DNA of 34,729 nucleotides from Bacteroidaceae bacterium. Lineage in GTDB: Bacteria > Bacteroidota > Bacteroidia > Bacteroidales > Bacteroidaceae. The notes beneath the pieces were generated by a model. That model searched no databases. It was not told the DNA's origin and was given only the letters and a program-made list of their open reading frames with translations. This document shows positions 466-6,563 of this stretch, piece after piece. Where the stretch lies: NCBI GenBank assembly GCA_017525235.1, contig JAFXTC010000064.1:1-34729 (forward strand). The letters run 5' to 3'. A program made the translations under genes and the position numbers. Every line of letters starts with the position of its first letter. Positions within the stretch are counted from its first letter, which is position 1.

Positions 466-2086
466 CTAAGGTCTAATGTCTAAGCTTTTTTTCCCATTCT
501 GGATGTAGATACCTTTTTTCCTCAATTGAGAATTGACCTTGCGCCCTTGAAGGTCGTAGATGCTATTGGCATTTTCTTTGGCAATGGTGGTGTTTATGGA
601 TGTCTCGGCTTCGGAAATATCTTTTATGCTAACAAATTTTTTCCATATTTCCGCCGACTTGTATGCATCTATACTGTTCTTGGGTACATAGAGGGTACAT
701 TTTTCTGGTGTGCCCGCAAAAGTCATTATGTCACATGTTGGTGGAATCTCGGCATAACAAGCCAAAAAGGTCGGCCAACATTCCCAAAAAGCTTCTACCT
801 TAATATTTTTAAGACTACTTCCAAGAGTTATGGATTTCAACTTTCTGCAATTCATAAAGGTTTTTTTGTCTATGCTCGTTACATTATTGGGGATTGTTAT
901 GGATTCTAGCCCATTACAACCGTAAAAAGAGGCATAACCAATACTTCTCACTCCTTCTGGAATAGTTATGGAGGTTAAACCTCTGCATAACCAGAAAGCA
1001 AAGTCACCAATCTGTAATACATCATCTGGGATAACTGTGTTCTGACAGCCTAAAACAAGTGTGTTTGTAGCTGTTTCTATAATTGCATTGCAACCATCTC
1101 GGGAATCATACACGCAGTTTCCCTCTTCTATAACAATGGAGATTAGATTATTCAGATCATCAAAAATATGATCGCTAATATATGTAACACTTTTAGGAAT
1201 GAAAATAGAGGACAGACCAGGACAAATCTCGAACATATTCTGGGATAACCCTTTTGTTCCTTCTTTGATTACAATCTGAGTTCCTTCCGGCATCTCACCT
1301 TTGTATTTATAGGCCACCTTTCCTGCATAGACTAATCCATCTGGCTGATTGTCGTACCAGGGCGTTGAATAGAAAGCATCATTACCAATGCAGTTTACTC
1401 CATCGGGAATATCTATAGAGACAAGGTTTGTACACCCCCTGAAAGCACGTGAACCAATCGTTGTCACGTTCTCAGGAATAGTTATTGATGTCAGGCCAGT
1501 ACAGCTCAAAAAAGCACAAGTACCAATCGTTGTCACGTTCTTGGGAATAATCACCGATGTCAAACTTTTACAGCCGGCAAAAGAATCGTCGCCAATATTT
1601 GTCACAGCCTCGGGTATAATAATAGATTCCAAACTATAGCACGATTGACAATGTATAATTATTAAGGCTTGTGACATCAGTGGGAATGTTGACTGTAATT
1701 AAACTTATACAATCACGAAAGGCACTATCTCCAATGTACGTTACGCTCTCAGGAATATGAATAGTGGTTAGACCAGTGCAGTTTGCAAAGGACCAATCAG
1801 CAATACGTATAACACTTGCAGGTATCGTAATGGAAGTAAGTTCACTACTATAAGAGAATGCTGATCGGCCGATTTCCGTTACACGGTATTCCTTCCCCTC
1901 GAATGTTACGAATTCTGGGATAATTACATCACCCGAGTAATTATCGCGAGCATTCTTCACTCTGAAAGTCACTATTGCTTCATCTCCAGAGAAGTTATAA
2001 TAGACACCATCAATCTCAGCATCATAGGCCAGCAGAGTGGTGTTGGCTACAAAGGAGAGTATAAAAAGGAATATAAACTTTTTCAT
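466..2086 (-). pseudogene. BspA-like leucine-rich repeat surface protein, frameshifted
   Basis: The gene is split into two overlapping minus-strand frames. The 5' part (2086 to 1634, 150 codons) has a signal peptide (MKKFIFLFILSFVANTTLLA) and then BspA-type LRR_5 repeats of the form LTSITIPxxVxxIxxxxFxxC. The 3' part (open to 466) continues the same repeat series. Its tail, IYDLQGRKV followed by KKGIYIQNGKK, resembles C-terminal sorting domains common in Bacteroidales surface proteins. The frame changes near 1635-1660, inside one repeat: the first frame stops after NNYTLSIVL while the second resumes the expected CYSLESIIIPEAVTNIG. One extra base there would explain the break. The restored product would be about 540 residues, secreted, possibly an adhesin. 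It could be a pseudogene, a phase-variable gene or a sequencing error. The last two residues (RP) and the stop lie in a TCTAATGTCTAA repeat shared with other gene ends in this window. Confidence 0.85.
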
Positions 2087-2210: not shown

Positions 2211-2243
2211 GCAAAGCCCTGCAAGATTGCTCCTGCAGGGCCA
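2211..2243 (-). terminator. hairpin terminator after the VirE-like gene
   Basis: A perfect 8-bp stem, GCCCTGCA (2216-2223) with TGCAGGGC (2234-2241), surrounds a 10-nt loop about 10 bases beyond the stop codon of the VirE-like gene. Read on the minus strand it is followed by TTTGCTCTTA, a short and imperfect U-tract, so termination may be partial. Confidence 0.65.
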
Positions 2244-2251
2244 TTCTTTTG

Positions 2252-4450
2252 TTAGTAAAACACCTTAATGGGACGTGGGACGCGGGACGTTTTGCGGAAA
2301 TGCTGACGGTCAATGGGTTCTATCCAACCATCGTTCTTCCAACGCATGATGACGTTTCTCAGCCCGCTATCCGTTGTGCCTTGTTTCAAGGCTCTGAGGT
2401 CGTCTCTTGTGAACGTTGGTGCAAGCTGGTCAAAAACGCTGTGGTTGGTACTATAACGCTGACACTCATCCTGCGCACAGATGTACTGATTTTTGAGCGC
2501 CTCGCCAAAGAGCTTCATCTGACCTTCCAGACAGTAGTTTGCCATCAGCAGGGCAAAGTCGATGCAAGACTTACTCTCTTTCTCCGTTTCCTCCAATAAG
2601 TGAAAGATAACACCGCAACGAAAACCTATAACGGCTGCTCTACGTCGATATGTGTCCATCACGCGGTCTATGTTCATTGCAGCCTCCACGCGTTTCTCTT
2701 CCAGCCATTTCTCTATGGCTTTCTGCAAACGTGGCACTTCCACCTCTCCGTTAGCGTTTCTCAACTTGGTTACAGCCTCTTGGATTCTGGCTTCCTCATC
2801 AGCTGTACGCTTACGGAACTTGGTCAGCTTAGCAAAGGCCCCGTCAGGCATTTCTGCAACAAGAACACGAGAGGAGAGTCCGTTCTCGATGTTATCACCC
2901 CTGAAACACTTCCTTACGGCTCCGTTGGTTCCCAGAATAGTCCAGTTGTAGGCCACATTCACCACACCGCTCTCGGCTTGGTCGCTATTGTAGTCCTGAC
3001 CCCATTCACCGTTATCGAAGCCATAGCGATACACATCATACTTGGCACTCCAAGAGCCTGCTCCATTTGTTTTGCGTAAGGTGTCTATCTCCTCGCTGAA
3101 TGAAAAGAGCGTGTGTCCGCAAGCGTTCTTCATTCGCTTCAGCAGCGTTGAGCAGGATATGGTTATAGGCACTACACGAATTATTACATGAGGGTCTTCT
3201 GGGGCTTTTTCGTTAGCCTTGCGAGCCTTCTTCTGCTCCTTCCATTCCTCCTCGCGCTTACGGGCGATAACGTCTTCTTCATCGAACTGGCGCCTCCACA
3301 CATCCACTGCATTCTTGCAGACACTCTTGTTGCTGGCTTGCTCACCTCTGACGATGGTCATCAGGTTCAGACGATGCGTGTTGCCATCCACATAAACCAC
3401 TCTTATTTCGTCGGCATACGCTCCTGCAATGGGCATTACAGCGCTTAGGACGGGCAAGTGCATATTCTCTGGAATACCTGCGAGGGTTTCTTTCAGACCG
3501 ATGGGGAGGGCATTTCTCAGCCTCTTGGGGAGAATCATTTGCTTTGTTCCCTCGCCATCAAATTCTTCACTCTTCACTCTTAATTCTTCATTCTTGATGA
3601 TTTCGCTCATCACTTTGCTGATACCCTTAGGAGTTTCCTTGCAAGCCGAATCAATGATGCTCTTAAACTCAGCTTCTGCGAGGCCGTAGCGAGGAATTAC
3701 CCTCATCAGTACCTCTTTCTTATTATCACAGATAGCACGAAGGTTTACGGCCAGTTTGTGCAGCCTCACGTTTCTTTCGCCTTCCTCGGGTTCGCCTCCG
3801 TCCCTGTTCCACCATTCAGTAATGATGGTGCTGTAGGGGATTCCTTTGAATGAGAGGGATGTTTCGGGGGCAACGCCAGAAGTGCTTACCTCTTCCTGCA
3901 AGGGATCTTTCTTGGGCTCTTGCTCCTCCACCTTAAAGAGCTCATCATCCAGATAGATAAGGTCATCAGGCTCGGCTGTAGTAGTAAAGAACACACGTGT
4001 AATGTCCTTGGCTCCTTTGTCATATTCCACGCCTAAGAGTTCGCTTGCCCACTTGAGGTTTTCCTCCTGCGAGAGTTCGGCTTTTCGCCTGAATACAAGA
4101 TGGTAGCCTGCAGCACGGGCACTAAGCTCCAGCATCAGCAAGCCCAGCTCGTCTTTCCTGCTCAGGATGCGCTCCTTCACACGTTGCATGTCTTCTGGGG
4201 TAATATGGTCTATATCCATACCAACGGTATTACTCATACGGGTAGCCCCTTTGAGCGTACCATCCTCGTTAGGCAGACACGAATAATTCATTTGCACCAA
4301 GTTGTGTTTCAGCCCGTCATTTCCCTTGCGAACGCTGAAAACATGCTGTTTCTGCATTCCTCCGTTACGCAGGCTCTTGTACTCCTCTGATGTTAATACG
4401 GGAGTCATCATCTTCTTTCCTTCAATAGTCTTAACTAAAAATACTGACAT
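2252..4450 (-). CDS. VirE N-terminal / DUF3987 primase-helicase-like protein
   Basis: Start chosen at 4450 (MSVFLVKTIEGKK), giving 732 residues; the frame is open 17 codons further up. The N-terminal ~180 residues resemble the BT4734-like/VirE_N domain (conserved GMDIDH segment, primase-like). The C-terminal half resembles DUF3987, with a degenerate Walker A, GEQASNKS, about residues 369-376. Such proteins are common on Bacteroidales chromosomes and mobile DNA and are presumed nucleic-acid helicases or primases; the real function is unknown. Two oddities are visible. KNEELRVKSEEF (about residues 286-297) is encoded by a short interspersed repeat (3561-3595). The last ~12 codons lie in a GGGACG repeat that reappears inverted at 6162-6204. 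An unusual palindromic promoter lies upstream, and the gene follows the HIRAN gene on the same strand. It is not the Agrobacterium VirE2 effector. Confidence 0.85.
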   Translation of the reverse strand: MSVFLVKTIEGKKMMTPVLTSEEYKSLRNGGMQKQHVFSVRKGNDGLKHNLVQMNYSCLPNEDGTLKGATRMSNTVGMDIDHITPEDMQRVKERILSRKDELGLLMLELSARAAGYHLVFRRKAELSQEENLKWASELLGVEYDKGAKDITRVFFTTTAEPDDLIYLDDELFKVEEQEPKKDPLQEEVSTSGVAPETSLSFKGIPYSTIITEWWNRDGGEPEEGERNVRLHKLAVNLRAICDNKKEVLMRVIPRYGLAEAEFKSIIDSACKETPKGISKVMSEIIKNEELRVKSEEFDGEGTKQMILPKRLRNALPIGLKETLAGIPENMHLPVLSAVMPIAGAYADEIRVVYVDGNTHRLNLMTIVRGEQASNKSVCKNAVDVWRRQFDEEDVIARKREEEWKEQKKARKANEKAPEDPHVIIRVVPITISCSTLLKRMKNACGHTLFSFSEEIDTLRKTNGAGSWSAKYDVYRYGFDNGEWGQDYNSDQAESGVVNVAYNWTILGTNGAVRKCFRGDNIENGLSSRVLVAEMPDGAFAKLTKFRKRTADEEARIQEAVTKLRNANGEVEVPRLQKAIEKWLEEKRVEAAMNIDRVMDTYRRRAAVIGFRCGVIFHLLEETEKESKSCIDFALLMANYCLEGQMKLFGEALKNQYICAQDECQRYSTNHSVFDQLAPTFTRDDLRALKQGTTDSGLRNVIMRWKNDGWIEPIDRQHFRKTSRVPRPIKVFY
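2259..2293 (+). repeat. GGGACG repeat, copy A (left boundary of VirE/HIRAN cassette)
   Basis: This 35-bp block (AACACCTTAATGGGACGT, then GGGACGC and GGGACGTTTT units) overlaps the last codons of the VirE-like gene. Its reverse complement reappears at 6162-6204 with one mismatch and one extra 8-bp unit, and a diverged copy in this orientation is at 6295-6345. Confidence 0.85.
3561..3595. repeat. short interspersed repeat inside the VirE-like reading frame
   Basis: AATTCTTCACTCTTCACTCT, then TAATTCTTCATTCTT, is a low-complexity repeat of the kind that normally lies between genes in Bacteroidales. Here it is in frame and encodes KNEELRVKSEEF on the minus strand, in the linker between the N-terminal and DUF3987 regions. 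Confidence 0.7.
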
Positions 4451-4622
4451 AATGCATTTAGTTTTGCTTCTGAAGAAGTTCCCTTCGAGTTCGATGGCCA
4501 TCTTTCACGTGAAAACTCTCCGAAAAGCTTCAACCTCTGCATCCGCTGTCCTTTCAGCGGGATTTAAATAATTAAACAATAATCTTGTCGGACAACTCGC
4601 GCTCGAATTTGTTTTGACGCTG

Positions 4623-4690
4623 CAAAGGTAAAGCAAAAAAATAACGGAAATCCCCTATATAGGGGGCTATACAAACTCCTATATAGGGGG
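4623..4690 (-). promoter_or_regulatory. VirE-like gene promoter with doubled palindromic operator
   Basis: Two near-identical boxes lie 24 bp apart: TCCCCTATATAGGGGG (4651-4666) and ACTCCTATATAGGGGG (4675-4690). The first contains a perfect 14-bp palindrome, CCCCTATATAGGGG (4652-4665). On the minus strand a TACCTTTG box (4623-4630) lies 20 bp downstream and fits a -7 element. The palindromes therefore cover the -33 region and just upstream, about 170-240 bp before the VirE-like ATG. A dimeric repressor or activator binding both boxes is inferred. Confidence 0.55.
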
Positions 4691-4730
4691 ACAAATTTAC
4701 TGATAATAATCTACTAATCAGTCAGTTAAG

Positions 4731-6035
4731 CTATAGTGTTTTTTTTGTGTCAAATATCCTCTTTATATCTGCAAATCTTGGTGGCTGCTTGTCCAGTTCT
4801 ATACTCAGCCATTTCTCCTGTGCCAGATTCCTTATACCCCAGTGTTTTTCAAAGATACTCCATTTTGCTTTCAGGTTAAGTACTTTTGCAAATGATTCAG
4901 CTATATACATTGCCTGAACGCGGCTTGTGCTTTTTAACAGCATTTGTTTGCTATCTACAAACCCTTCTTTCTCCAGTCTCTTCCAGTATATCATTGCCTC
5001 TTCCGAGGCTAATGGGCCTACACCCCTTTCCCCCATACCAAGCGCATCCTCTATTCTCTCTATCAGCAACAGAACGCCGAAAAGGTCGTAGATCTCCGTA
5101 CGTGAGAGTCCCAAATAATTCACCTTAAGCGCCATAGCATCAAGGTTTTCGGGGTCGCGCAACTCGCTCCAAGGCATATTCTCCAACCAAAGGCGCAGAC
5201 GCTCCAGTTCCGCCTTCATCTTGTTCTTGTCAGCATCCTTGAAATCCTTGCCGTCTAAGAACGTCTTGCAATACTTGTTGTATAGGTGGAAGGTTATGCC
5301 CTTGTCAGCCTTTATGGCTTGCAGATGCTGCTTGAACACGCGCTCTGGCCAATGGTCAGATGTACGGTGCATGTCACCCACGCACGCGCGCACCTTTTTA
5401 TATATGTCAGCCAGCATAAGGGACTGCTCCTTGGTCAAATCCCAATCCTTGCTTTGCTTTGTGAGTGCGTGTAACTTCTTCATAATCATGTTTCGCCACA
5501 CGTTCTCATCGTAGCAGATAGATGTCTTCATCAGCGGTACATAGTGCGACATAATTTTCAGTAACTCCTGCACGTTCTTTTGCTGGAGCTCTAAATTCAT
5601 TATGCGACAAGCTATCATCTGAAGGGTACTCTCGGCCCTTGTGAACGGCATTCTAACCTCTTCGCCCAGCGGGCTGGCAGGCAGAATGGAGGGGCGGGAG
5701 TTCATTACGTGCGGCTTCACCTGAGCACCCGGTACGGTGACAAAGAGGGTTATATGCCCATCGTTGCGCTCTACAAGGGCATCGCATTGCTGATTGTCGT
5801 CGAGCAAAGGGTGCACCCCTGCCGTCTCTTCTTTGTCTATGTACCCAATGCGCTCATAATCAATGTAAACGGCAATAGCCTGAGTATCCATAGGGTTCTC
5901 GGGCTCGGCCACCAGCACCACGGGTGTGCCCTTCTGCAAACCTGTCACGTACTTCTCTGCCATCTGTGTGCGCACCTCTTGGCTCAGCTCCATAGGGTAC
6001 TGATACCTAATACCTGTAACTGTGAATTCTATCAT
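4731..6035 (-). CDS. HIRAN-domain protein of unknown function
   Basis: The product is 434 residues. Residues 1-110 fit a HIRAN domain: an opening strand (IEFTVTGIRYQYP), then TPVVLVAEPENPMDTQAIAVY and RIGYIDKEE. HIRAN domains bind the 3' end of single-stranded DNA in HLTF-type remodelers and also occur as stand-alone modules in bacteria. The remaining ~320 residues look mainly helical, with no catalytic motif I recognise. Acidic, aromatic-rich stretches such as LENMPWSELRDPENLDAMALKVNYLGLSR occur in it, but I can name no second domain. It precedes the VirE-like gene on the same strand with ~280 bp between, and both sit between the same inverted repeats. A joint role in DNA processing is inference. 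Confidence 0.75.
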   Translation of the reverse strand: MIEFTVTGIRYQYPMELSQEVRTQMAEKYVTGLQKGTPVVLVAEPENPMDTQAIAVYIDYERIGYIDKEETAGVHPLLDDNQQCDALVERNDGHITLFVTVPGAQVKPHVMNSRPSILPASPLGEEVRMPFTRAESTLQMIACRIMNLELQQKNVQELLKIMSHYVPLMKTSICYDENVWRNMIMKKLHALTKQSKDWDLTKEQSLMLADIYKKVRACVGDMHRTSDHWPERVFKQHLQAIKADKGITFHLYNKYCKTFLDGKDFKDADKNKMKAELERLRLWLENMPWSELRDPENLDAMALKVNYLGLSRTEIYDLFGVLLLIERIEDALGMGERGVGPLASEEAMIYWKRLEKEGFVDSKQMLLKSTSRVQAMYIAESFAKVLNLKAKWSIFEKHWGIRNLAQEKWLSIELDKQPPRFADIKRIFDTKKTL

Positions 6036-6096
6036 CCTTCTGAAAAAGTCTCTTTACCTTCTTTCTGGGGTATGGTCTATGTATTTTTGAAGCACA

Positions 6097-6125
6097 AAGG
6101 TACGAAGAAAAAGTAAGTTATCAAA
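6097..6125 (-). promoter_or_regulatory. probable promoter of the HIRAN gene
   Basis: On the minus strand TACCTTTG (6097-6104) matches the -7 element and TTTG (6122-6125) lies 17 bp upstream, slightly shorter than the usual 19-20 bp spacing. The HIRAN start codon is about 60 bp downstream. Confidence 0.45.
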
Positions 6126-6161
6126 GCGAAAGACATTATTATCTTTGCTGTTGGGAGGAGA

Positions 6162-6204
6162 AAAACGTCCCGCGTCCCAGCGTCCCACGTCTCATTAAGG
6201 TGTT
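6162..6204 (-). repeat. GGGACG repeat, copy B, inverted (right boundary of VirE/HIRAN cassette)
   Basis: Read on the minus strand this block gives AACACCTTAATGAGACGT, GGGACGC, TGGGACGC, GGGACGTTTT. It matches copy A at 34 of 35 positions apart from one additional 8-bp TGGGACGC unit. Together the two form inverted boundaries around 2259-6204. Confidence 0.85.
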
Positions 6205-6294
6205 TTTGGGTATGGATATGCAGAGGGAGGGAAGGGTGGTTAGTATTATTAAATATTTATTAATATATATACCCTCTCTCCTACCCCTTGCACT
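6205..6294. other. AT-rich spacer between opposing GGGACG repeats
   Basis: About 90 bp with no gene. Near its centre is a palindromic AT tract containing TAAATATTTA (6250-6259). With the flanking inverted GGGACG blocks it could fold into a long hairpin. Confidence 0.5.
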
Positions 6295-6345
6295 CGAAAA
6301 GGTGCTTAATGGGACGTTGGGACGCGGGACGCTGGGACGCTTTGC
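6295..6345 (+). repeat. GGGACG repeat, copy C
   Basis: GCTTAATGGGACGTTGGGAC followed by further GGGACGC and TGGGACGC units is in the same orientation as copy A and opposite to copy B. It starts about 90 bp after copy B. The TTAATGGGACGT core is conserved, but the outer AACACC end is replaced by AGGTGC. Confidence 0.75.
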
Positions 6346-6378: not shown

Positions 6379-6510
6379 CACGTGTAGAGTTGGCAAAGTT
6401 CACGTGTAGACTTTGGCATTTCCACGTGTAGTGTTTGGCTTTGCCACGTGTAGACTTCCGCAGCGCCACATGTGGGGTTTGGTATCGCCACACAGGCTTG
6501 ATACCGTGCA
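6379..6510. repeat. six tandem 22-bp units with CACGTG core
   Basis: Units start at 6379, 6401, 6423, 6445, 6467 and 6489, a constant 22-bp period. Units 1-4 begin CACGTGTAG; unit 5 begins CACATGTGG and unit 6 CACACAGG, so the array decays toward the tRNA. The consensus is roughly CACGTGTAGACTTTGGC plus five variable bases. The period is not a multiple of three and no promoter or start fits a coding role. CACGTG is itself a palindrome, and 22 bp is close to two helical turns, which would put every core on the same DNA face. Function unknown. Confidence 0.85.
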
Positions 6511-6524
6511 TGAAATCTGATGAA

Positions 6525-6563
6525 TCAAAAAAGGGATTTGCGATTGCTCGTAAATCCCTTTTC
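6525..6563 (-). terminator. intrinsic terminator of tRNA-Met
   Basis: A perfect 11-bp stem, AAAAGGGATTT (6529-6539) with AAATCCCTTTT (6552-6562), lies directly 3' of the tRNA on the minus strand and is followed there by a T-run. The A/T symmetry means it could also work on the opposite strand. Confidence 0.85.

What the first reader, a model, noticed from the sequence alone, without database searches (positions are those of the whole stretch)
2259..6204. VirE/HIRAN gene pair bounded by near-identical inverted GGGACG repeats
The 35-bp block at 2259-2293 reappears inverted at 6162-6204 with a single mismatch plus one extra 8-bp TGGGACGC unit. Between them lie exactly two genes, a VirE-N/DUF3987 protein and a HIRAN-domain protein, both on the minus strand. 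The left copy encodes the C-terminus of the VirE-like protein. The unit looks like a compact cassette with terminal inverted repeats and no transposase, next to a tRNA gene. It could be a non-autonomous mobile unit, a DNA-processing or defence module, or two genes that happen to be marked by a family of genomic repeats.
Basis: partly seen in the sequence, partly recalled or inferred. Interest (0 to 1): 0.72.

Follow-up and report, generated by a model that had tools for sequence, protein, structure and literature searches.

The report
Primase element with a private origin address
The repeats around this gene pair look like binding sites that one of the two proteins, a DNA-copying enzyme, reads with its own tail, and related elements in these gut bacteria carry different addresses, as if they were separate small replicating units.

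Summary
The repeats are real, but there are three, not two. One three-unit array forms the 3' end of the VirE-like gene. The right-hand copy is one arm of a 183-bp palindrome (6161-6343): two inverted iteron arrays around an AT-rich core. Of 80 relatives, 37 have such a palindrome upstream of the gene, and the iterons differ between loci. The iteron core NNN (in YGNNNCA) is predicted by 13 residues of the protein's recognition helix in 38 of 42 loci; residues 1-659 give 15. Columns 716, 719 and 722, one helix face, lead the signal. Palindrome arrays kilobases away covary with the same segment (partial correlation 0.67; 0 of 300 permutations), so linkage alone does not explain it. The protein has a PrimPol-like N-terminus and a predicted C-terminal winged helix. 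Best reading: a SaPI-like initiator, its iteron origin and exchangeable cargo (HIRAN here; EcoRII, methyltransferase or pAgo-like genes elsewhere), with no integrase. Binding is very likely; origin function is inferred; mobility rests on non-orthologous positions only, and no empty site or free form was seen. The cassette idea is partly right; chance repeats are not.

The parts
2213..2256 (-). terminator-like hairpin just after the VirE-like gene (by eye); left end of the block shared with G067
2264..2289 (-). third iteron array (3 units CGTCCC, ends CATTAAG); encodes the last residues of the VirE-like protein
2252..4501 (-). VirE-like / DUF3987 PrimPol-ATPase-winged-helix protein, 749 aa, proposed initiator
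3932..4453 (-). PrimPol-like domain, residues 17-190; D96, D98, H134, D166
2525..3451 (-). DUF3987 ATPase-like region, residues 351-659; P-loop-like GEQASNKS 386-393
2282..2446 (-). C-terminal winged helix, residues 686-740
2333..2371 (-). recognition helix, residues 711-723; columns 716, 719, 722 track the iteron core
4731..6035 (-). HIRAN-domain partner protein, 434 aa (HIRAN about 1-106, then helical)
6161..6199 (.). palindrome arm next to the operon, 4 units (one imperfect)
6200..6304 (.). AT-rich spacer of the palindrome, 105 bp
6305..6343 (.). outer palindrome arm, 4 units; identity with G067 ends at 6339
6140..6147 (+). promoter-like TATCTTTG pointing into the palindrome (motif TAnnTTTG recalled, not tested)
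   Evidence: sequence

Best explanation
The 749-aa protein is the replication initiator (primase-helicase) of a small chromosomal element. Its C-terminal winged helix binds short iterons. The iterons form an origin-like palindrome (two inverted arrays around an AT-rich core) at one end of the element, and a third array at the 3' end of the gene itself. The iteron core differs between elements (ten types among 57 arrays) and goes with a matching recognition helix; elements of one genome differed in all pairs examined. That would keep elements in one cell from firing each other's origins, much like plasmid incompatibility groups. Binding at the palindrome would let the ATPase open the AT-rich core and the PrimPol prime it, amplifying the element and its cargo. 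In the window the cargo is the HIRAN gene; in relatives it includes restriction, methylation or Argonaute-like genes. Shown by computation: anatomy, helix-iteron covariation, predicted folds of the two ends. Inferred: binding in the cell, origin firing, amplification, transfer.
For: Palindrome upstream of the gene in 37 of 80 relatives and in the window; 43 palindromes in 102 loci scanned (42 distinct, L132 and L178 are one place) against 0 in the same sequences reversed; 25 of 35 loci with at least 7.9 kb upstream. The 3' array matches its own locus's palindrome better than others' (mean score 26.1 against 14.6; 0 of 10,000 permutations, 34 loci; own palindrome ranks first in 12 of 34, since many loci share a type). 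VirE window 701-729 against 3' arrays: partial correlation 0.56 (47 loci; 0 of 300 permutations; next best separate region 0.20). Against palindrome arrays 1.5-7.6 kb away: 0.67; windows ending before residue 660 at most 0.17 (34 loci; 0 of 300). The HU-like gene beside the palindrome does not track it (rho 0.16, 20 loci) while VirE 692-737 does (0.66). Leave-one-out: helix 38 of 42, residues 1-659 15 of 42, majority guess 19. Code: TCC with N716/M719/K722 in 9 of 9, TGA with K/Q716 and S719 in 19 of 19. Of 31 loci outside that table given to, 23 have the motif; the rule covered 19 by eye and was right in 17 (not blind for most, see full report). Spacer AT 70%, richest 50 nt 93%, 1 kb beside it 54% (38 palindromes). 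PrimPol-like and winged-helix folds. Outside the genus, 5 of 12 DUF3987 loci examined have an iteron inverted pair directly after the stop codon, the position of SaPI origins (passages of PMC7581432).
Confidence: 0.65

Rival explanations
1. Autoregulation. The winged helix binds the palindrome as an operator of its own operon (and of the divergent HU-like gene in relatives); the 3' array is a second control site. The primase acts elsewhere.
For: In many relatives the palindrome lies between a divergent HU-like gene and the operon (by eye; HU-HIG by Pfam in 3 of 3 tested); promoter-like motifs lie beside it.
Against: Long inverted iteron arrays around a strongly AT-rich core fit origins better (inference). 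In 5 of 12 loci outside the genus the inverted pair lies directly after the gene.
Confidence: 0.18
2. Recombination or transposition ends. The arrays are the terminal sites of a mobile cassette that the protein or a host enzyme cuts and joins.
For: The block shared with G067 ends at the outer arm; flanks differ and cargo is exchanged. Next to the same tRNA-Met, 6 of 6 relatives fetched (of 8 with a long match, of 139 searched) have other sequence without VirE or HIRAN.
Against: Pfam finds no transposase or integrase domain in either gene; in relatives with an HU-like gene the palindrome is internal. Target-site duplications were not searched for systematically.
Confidence: 0.1
3. REP-like genomic repeats that happen to sit near the genes.
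For: Orphan palindromes exist (own C56, two in G009, one in G008), and half arrays elsewhere in G067.
Against: Iteron sequence follows the recognition helix. Within five genomes 11 pairs of elements share no core (2.4 expected, P 0.06, so weak on its own).
Confidence: 0.03
4. A defence system in which the HU-like and primase proteins recognise invading DNA (reading recalled from a 2017 HU-superfamily paper that is not held).
For: HU-HIG genes; defence-type cargo; the HIRAN protein matches the PADLOC candidate PDC-M03B over its HIRAN domain (4.8e-8) and the VirE-like protein a CRISPR-associated PrimPol model weakly (0.0018).
Against: The iterons are in the element itself and differ between elements; both PADLOC matches cover one common domain only.
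Confidence: 0.04

Closest known systems
SaPI / PICI replication module (Rep initiator plus iteron origin)
   Same: ATPase initiator with AEP primase, iterons at the 3' end of the initiator gene, C-terminal DNA-binding domain, chromosomal location (passages of PMC7581432)
   Different: No integrase or packaging gene found; extra upstream palindrome; DUF3987 instead of D5-like or DUF927 ATPase; Bacteroidales
PICMI satellites of Vibrionaceae
   Same: Small island with a DUF3987 primase (passages of PMC10803314)
   Different: PICMIs carry integrase and AlpA; neither is in this two-gene unit; a fis site was not looked for
SCCmec cch2 operon
   Same: Initiator helicase binding direct repeats next to its gene through its C-terminal domain (passages of PMC7581432)
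   Different: Primase-polymerase is a separate protein there; fused here
BT4734-like AEPs and DUF3987 primase fusions
   Same: Family-level resemblance of the protein (passages of PMC5862659)
   Different: No iterons or recognition code in the passages seen
PINSR, 188-bp Prevotella intermedia repeat
   Same: Intergenic repeat of similar length in a related lineage
   Different: Reported to lack terminal inverted repeats (passages of PMC4755523)

Membership tests
SaPI/PICI phage satellites | integrase at one end | tested here: not met
   only two genes in 2213-6343; Pfam finds no integrase
SaPI/PICI phage satellites | primase-helicase initiator | tested here: met
   PrimPol-like fold, conserved motifs, DUF3987; activity not tested
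SaPI/PICI phage satellites | iteron array at 3' end of initiator gene, read by its C-terminal domain | tested here: met
   array present; reading shown as covariation only
SaPI/PICI phage satellites | packaging or capsid-interference genes | tested here: not met
   no such match for the two genes
PICMI | integrase and AlpA genes | tested here: not met
PICMI | insertion next to fis | not tested
   flanks in the window are a surface-protein gene and tRNA-Met
iteron replicon | tandem iterons plus AT-rich region | tested here: met
iteron replicon | autonomous replication | not testable with these tools
   needs an experiment or read coverage
MITE / non-autonomous transposon | terminal inverted repeats with target-site duplication | tested here: inconclusive
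   inverted arms present; duplications not searched for systematically
REP/RAYT repeats | linked Y1 transposase | tested here: not met
   no such domain in the two genes
BT4734-like N-terminal domain (PF08800) | score above gathering cut-off | tested here: not met
   14.3 against 22.4 bits

The most novel reading that the evidence does not exclude
Rumen Prevotella relatives carry several integrase-free chromosomal replicons side by side, each with an origin address written in three bases and read by about three residues of its own primase; on a signal they amplify themselves and their defence cargo, and new addresses arise by joint change of helix and iterons.
Probability: 0.35. Interest if true: 0.87.

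Novelty: new variant of a known kind. Interest (0 to 1): 0.75.

Why it matters
It gives a function-level hypothesis for a large, poorly named class of Bacteroidales genes and a directly testable protein-DNA recognition code. It would explain how several related elements share one cell, and would place defence genes of gut bacteria on self-copying chromosomal units.

Tried and rejected
GGGACG repeats as a genus-wide family: the two-unit pattern matches 47 of 61 genomes, but most matches are unlike the element and the reversed pattern is about as common in many genomes. HIRAN-VirE as an obligatory pair: HIRAN-protein matches in 19 of 61 genus genomes, mostly over its C-terminal region only. Free or plasmid form: no plasmid match; two phage-collection scaffolds are linear; viral contigs gave 2 loci, used only. 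Empty site: with the window's flanks joined, 94 of 139 genus genomes matched, on the tRNA side only apart from the own genome; no joined match. Pfam, PHROGs and NCBIfam gave no useful name for the non-HIRAN partner genes tested, and PADLOC none; the HIRAN protein did match PADLOC PDC-M03B. The Cell Cycle 2017 HU paper is not held. Searches for print showed nothing on such arrays in their listings or in the passages opened; no paper was read whole and most subscription papers are not in the library. Rows dropped: proteins with internal stops or under 480 aa (63 of 81 kept), loci without a clear 3' array (57 of 81 kept), both tests passed by 47; core types seen once (47 to 42). Of 15 DUF3987 matches, 12 were examined (two own-genome rows and one fragment left out). 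A script fault gave empty tblastn output, repaired; one search failed on a missing row and was rerun.

Full report
WHAT IS THERE. The window has two minus-strand genes: a 749-aa VirE-like/DUF3987 protein (2252-4501) and a 434-aa HIRAN protein (4731-6035). The GGGACG repeats occur in three places, not two: near 2270-2289 (plus), 6166-6186 (minus) and 6311-6339 (plus). The last two are the arms of a palindrome, 6161-6343, around a 105-bp AT-rich core. The left copy is inside the end of the first gene. In this genome the pattern occurs at only one other place, a second palindrome on contig C56 with no such genes beside it. The own genome is 73% complete, so further copies may be missing.

RELATIVES. 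The closest relative found (G067, the same contig as L178; protein 87% identical) has the same block: 83% DNA identity over window 2213-4641 and 6084-6339, but two other genes in place of HIRAN, without a Pfam match. The flanks outside differ. The window's tRNA-side flank has a long match in eight of 139 genus genomes. In the six that I fetched, no VirE or HIRAN gene lies in the 11-13 kb taken, and homology begins at 6520-6529. G067 is one of the six, and its VirE-like gene is on another contig. So the two copies are not at orthologous sites. That suggests movement but does not show it: the other flank was not found in these genomes, so no true empty site was seen.

GENERAL ARCHITECTURE. A scan of species genomes gave 80 loci. 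A generic search for inverted array pairs, not tied to GGGACG, found a palindrome upstream of the gene in 37 of 80; in the 102 loci scanned there were 43 (42 distinct), and none in the reversed sequences. Of 35 loci with at least 7.9 kb upstream, 25 have one. Between palindrome and gene lie 1.5-7.6 kb of partly variable genes: EcoRII with Vsr and an HNH protein in L188, a C5 methyltransferase in L196, a pAgo-like protein in L193, and by eye toxin-antitoxin-like pairs. Many loci have a divergent HU-like gene beyond the palindrome (by eye; HU-HIG in 3 of 3 tested) and a gene like DUF5675 after the array (by eye; 1 of 1 tested). HIRAN partners recur in L183, L224 and L248. L194, L199, L200 and L211 are syntenic, so the element can also be inherited in place.

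ADDRESSES. Most arrays end in CATTAAG and have units YGNNNCA with a variable core: TGA 23, TCC 11, TAA 7, CCA 7, TTG 3, TTA 2 and four single types among 57 of 81 loci with a clear 3' array. In 13 loci the TAA of the array's end is the stop codon of the gene. The 3' array resembles its own palindrome more than others' (mean 26.1 against 14.6, 0 of 10,000 permutations), though its own ranks first in only 12 of 34 because many loci share a type. Within single genomes elements differ: RUG11493 has TTA, TAA, CAA and an ATGACAA type. Among 11 within-genome pairs in five genomes none share a core; 2.4 were expected, P 0.06.

In 30-residue windows, controlled for overall identity, the C-terminus covaries with iteron sequence: 0.56 for 3' arrays (47 loci; other regions up to 0.20, permutation maxima 0.15 on average) and 0.67 for the distant palindromes (34 loci; windows ending before 660 at most 0.17), with 0 of 300 permutations in each. 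The HU-like neighbour, nearer to the palindrome, does not (rho 0.16 against 0.66, 20 loci chosen by eye). AlphaFold places a winged helix at 686-740 with its recognition helix at 711-723; this is the segment that covaries. It predicts the core in 38 of 42 loci against 15 of 42 for residues 1-659 and 19 for the majority guess; with neighbours limited to under 70% identity elsewhere, the winged helix gives 27.7 and the rest 3.0 of 42. Columns 716, 722 and 719 have the highest mutual information of 624. The rule read was then applied by eye to loci outside that table: of 31 given to, 23 have the motif, the rule covered 19 and was right in 17, wrong in L202 and L215. This was not a blind test: most of these arrays had been printed before, for eight loci the helix too, and some loci are close to table loci; L259 and L232 look identical.

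MECHANISM. SaPI initiators bind iterons just after their own gene through a C-terminal domain (passages of PMC7581432). The 3' array here is in that position. In 12 DUF3987 loci outside the genus (nine from other Bacteroidales families, three from one genome of another genus in the family), 7 have a tandem array near the stop above all 30 shuffles. Six have an inverted pair after the gene above all 60 shuffles; one of these (L281) is a plain GC hairpin, so I count 5 as iteron pairs. I therefore read the palindrome as an origin and the protein as its initiator. What is shown is covariation and anatomy; binding, origin firing and amplification are inferred. An operator role is the main rival and may hold as well.

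LIMITS. The loci are related by descent; I controlled for identity but did not count independent events on a tree. L196 contradicts locus matching, and L202, L214 and L215 lack a matching 3' array. No free form of the element was seen.

Noticed in passing
window 6379-6490: 22-nt CACGTGTAG repeats, a separate dispersed family: 26 further match rows in the own genome at E<1e-3, besides C56.
   Followed up: partly
L044 15553-15842: Orphan palindrome of the same address plus CACGTGTAG repeats, 90% identical to the window's, with no VirE-like gene beside it.
   Followed up: partly
window 6140-6147: Promoter-like TATCTTTG pointing into the palindrome, also in G067, although no HU-like gene is seen by eye beside either palindrome.
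   Followed up: no
L132 478-664, 5414-5601, 7178-7248: Duplicated gene-end segments (array, terminator, part of an upstream region), 92-97% identical, around the G067 element.
   Followed up: no
L134 2486-2543; L132 8464-8522: Half arrays directly after the stop codons of other genes in G067.
   Followed up: no
L277, L278, L279, L282, L287: DUF3987 genes outside the genus with iteron inverted pairs right after the stop codon.
   Followed up: partly
L199 and L200: At a syntenic site one element has extra genes between palindrome and partner genes and the other has none: cargo gain or loss in place.
   Followed up: no
L227, L228, L210: tRNA genes lie within about 200 bp of the gene after the array, at the element's end; the window's palindrome is also near a tRNA-Met.
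   Followed up: no
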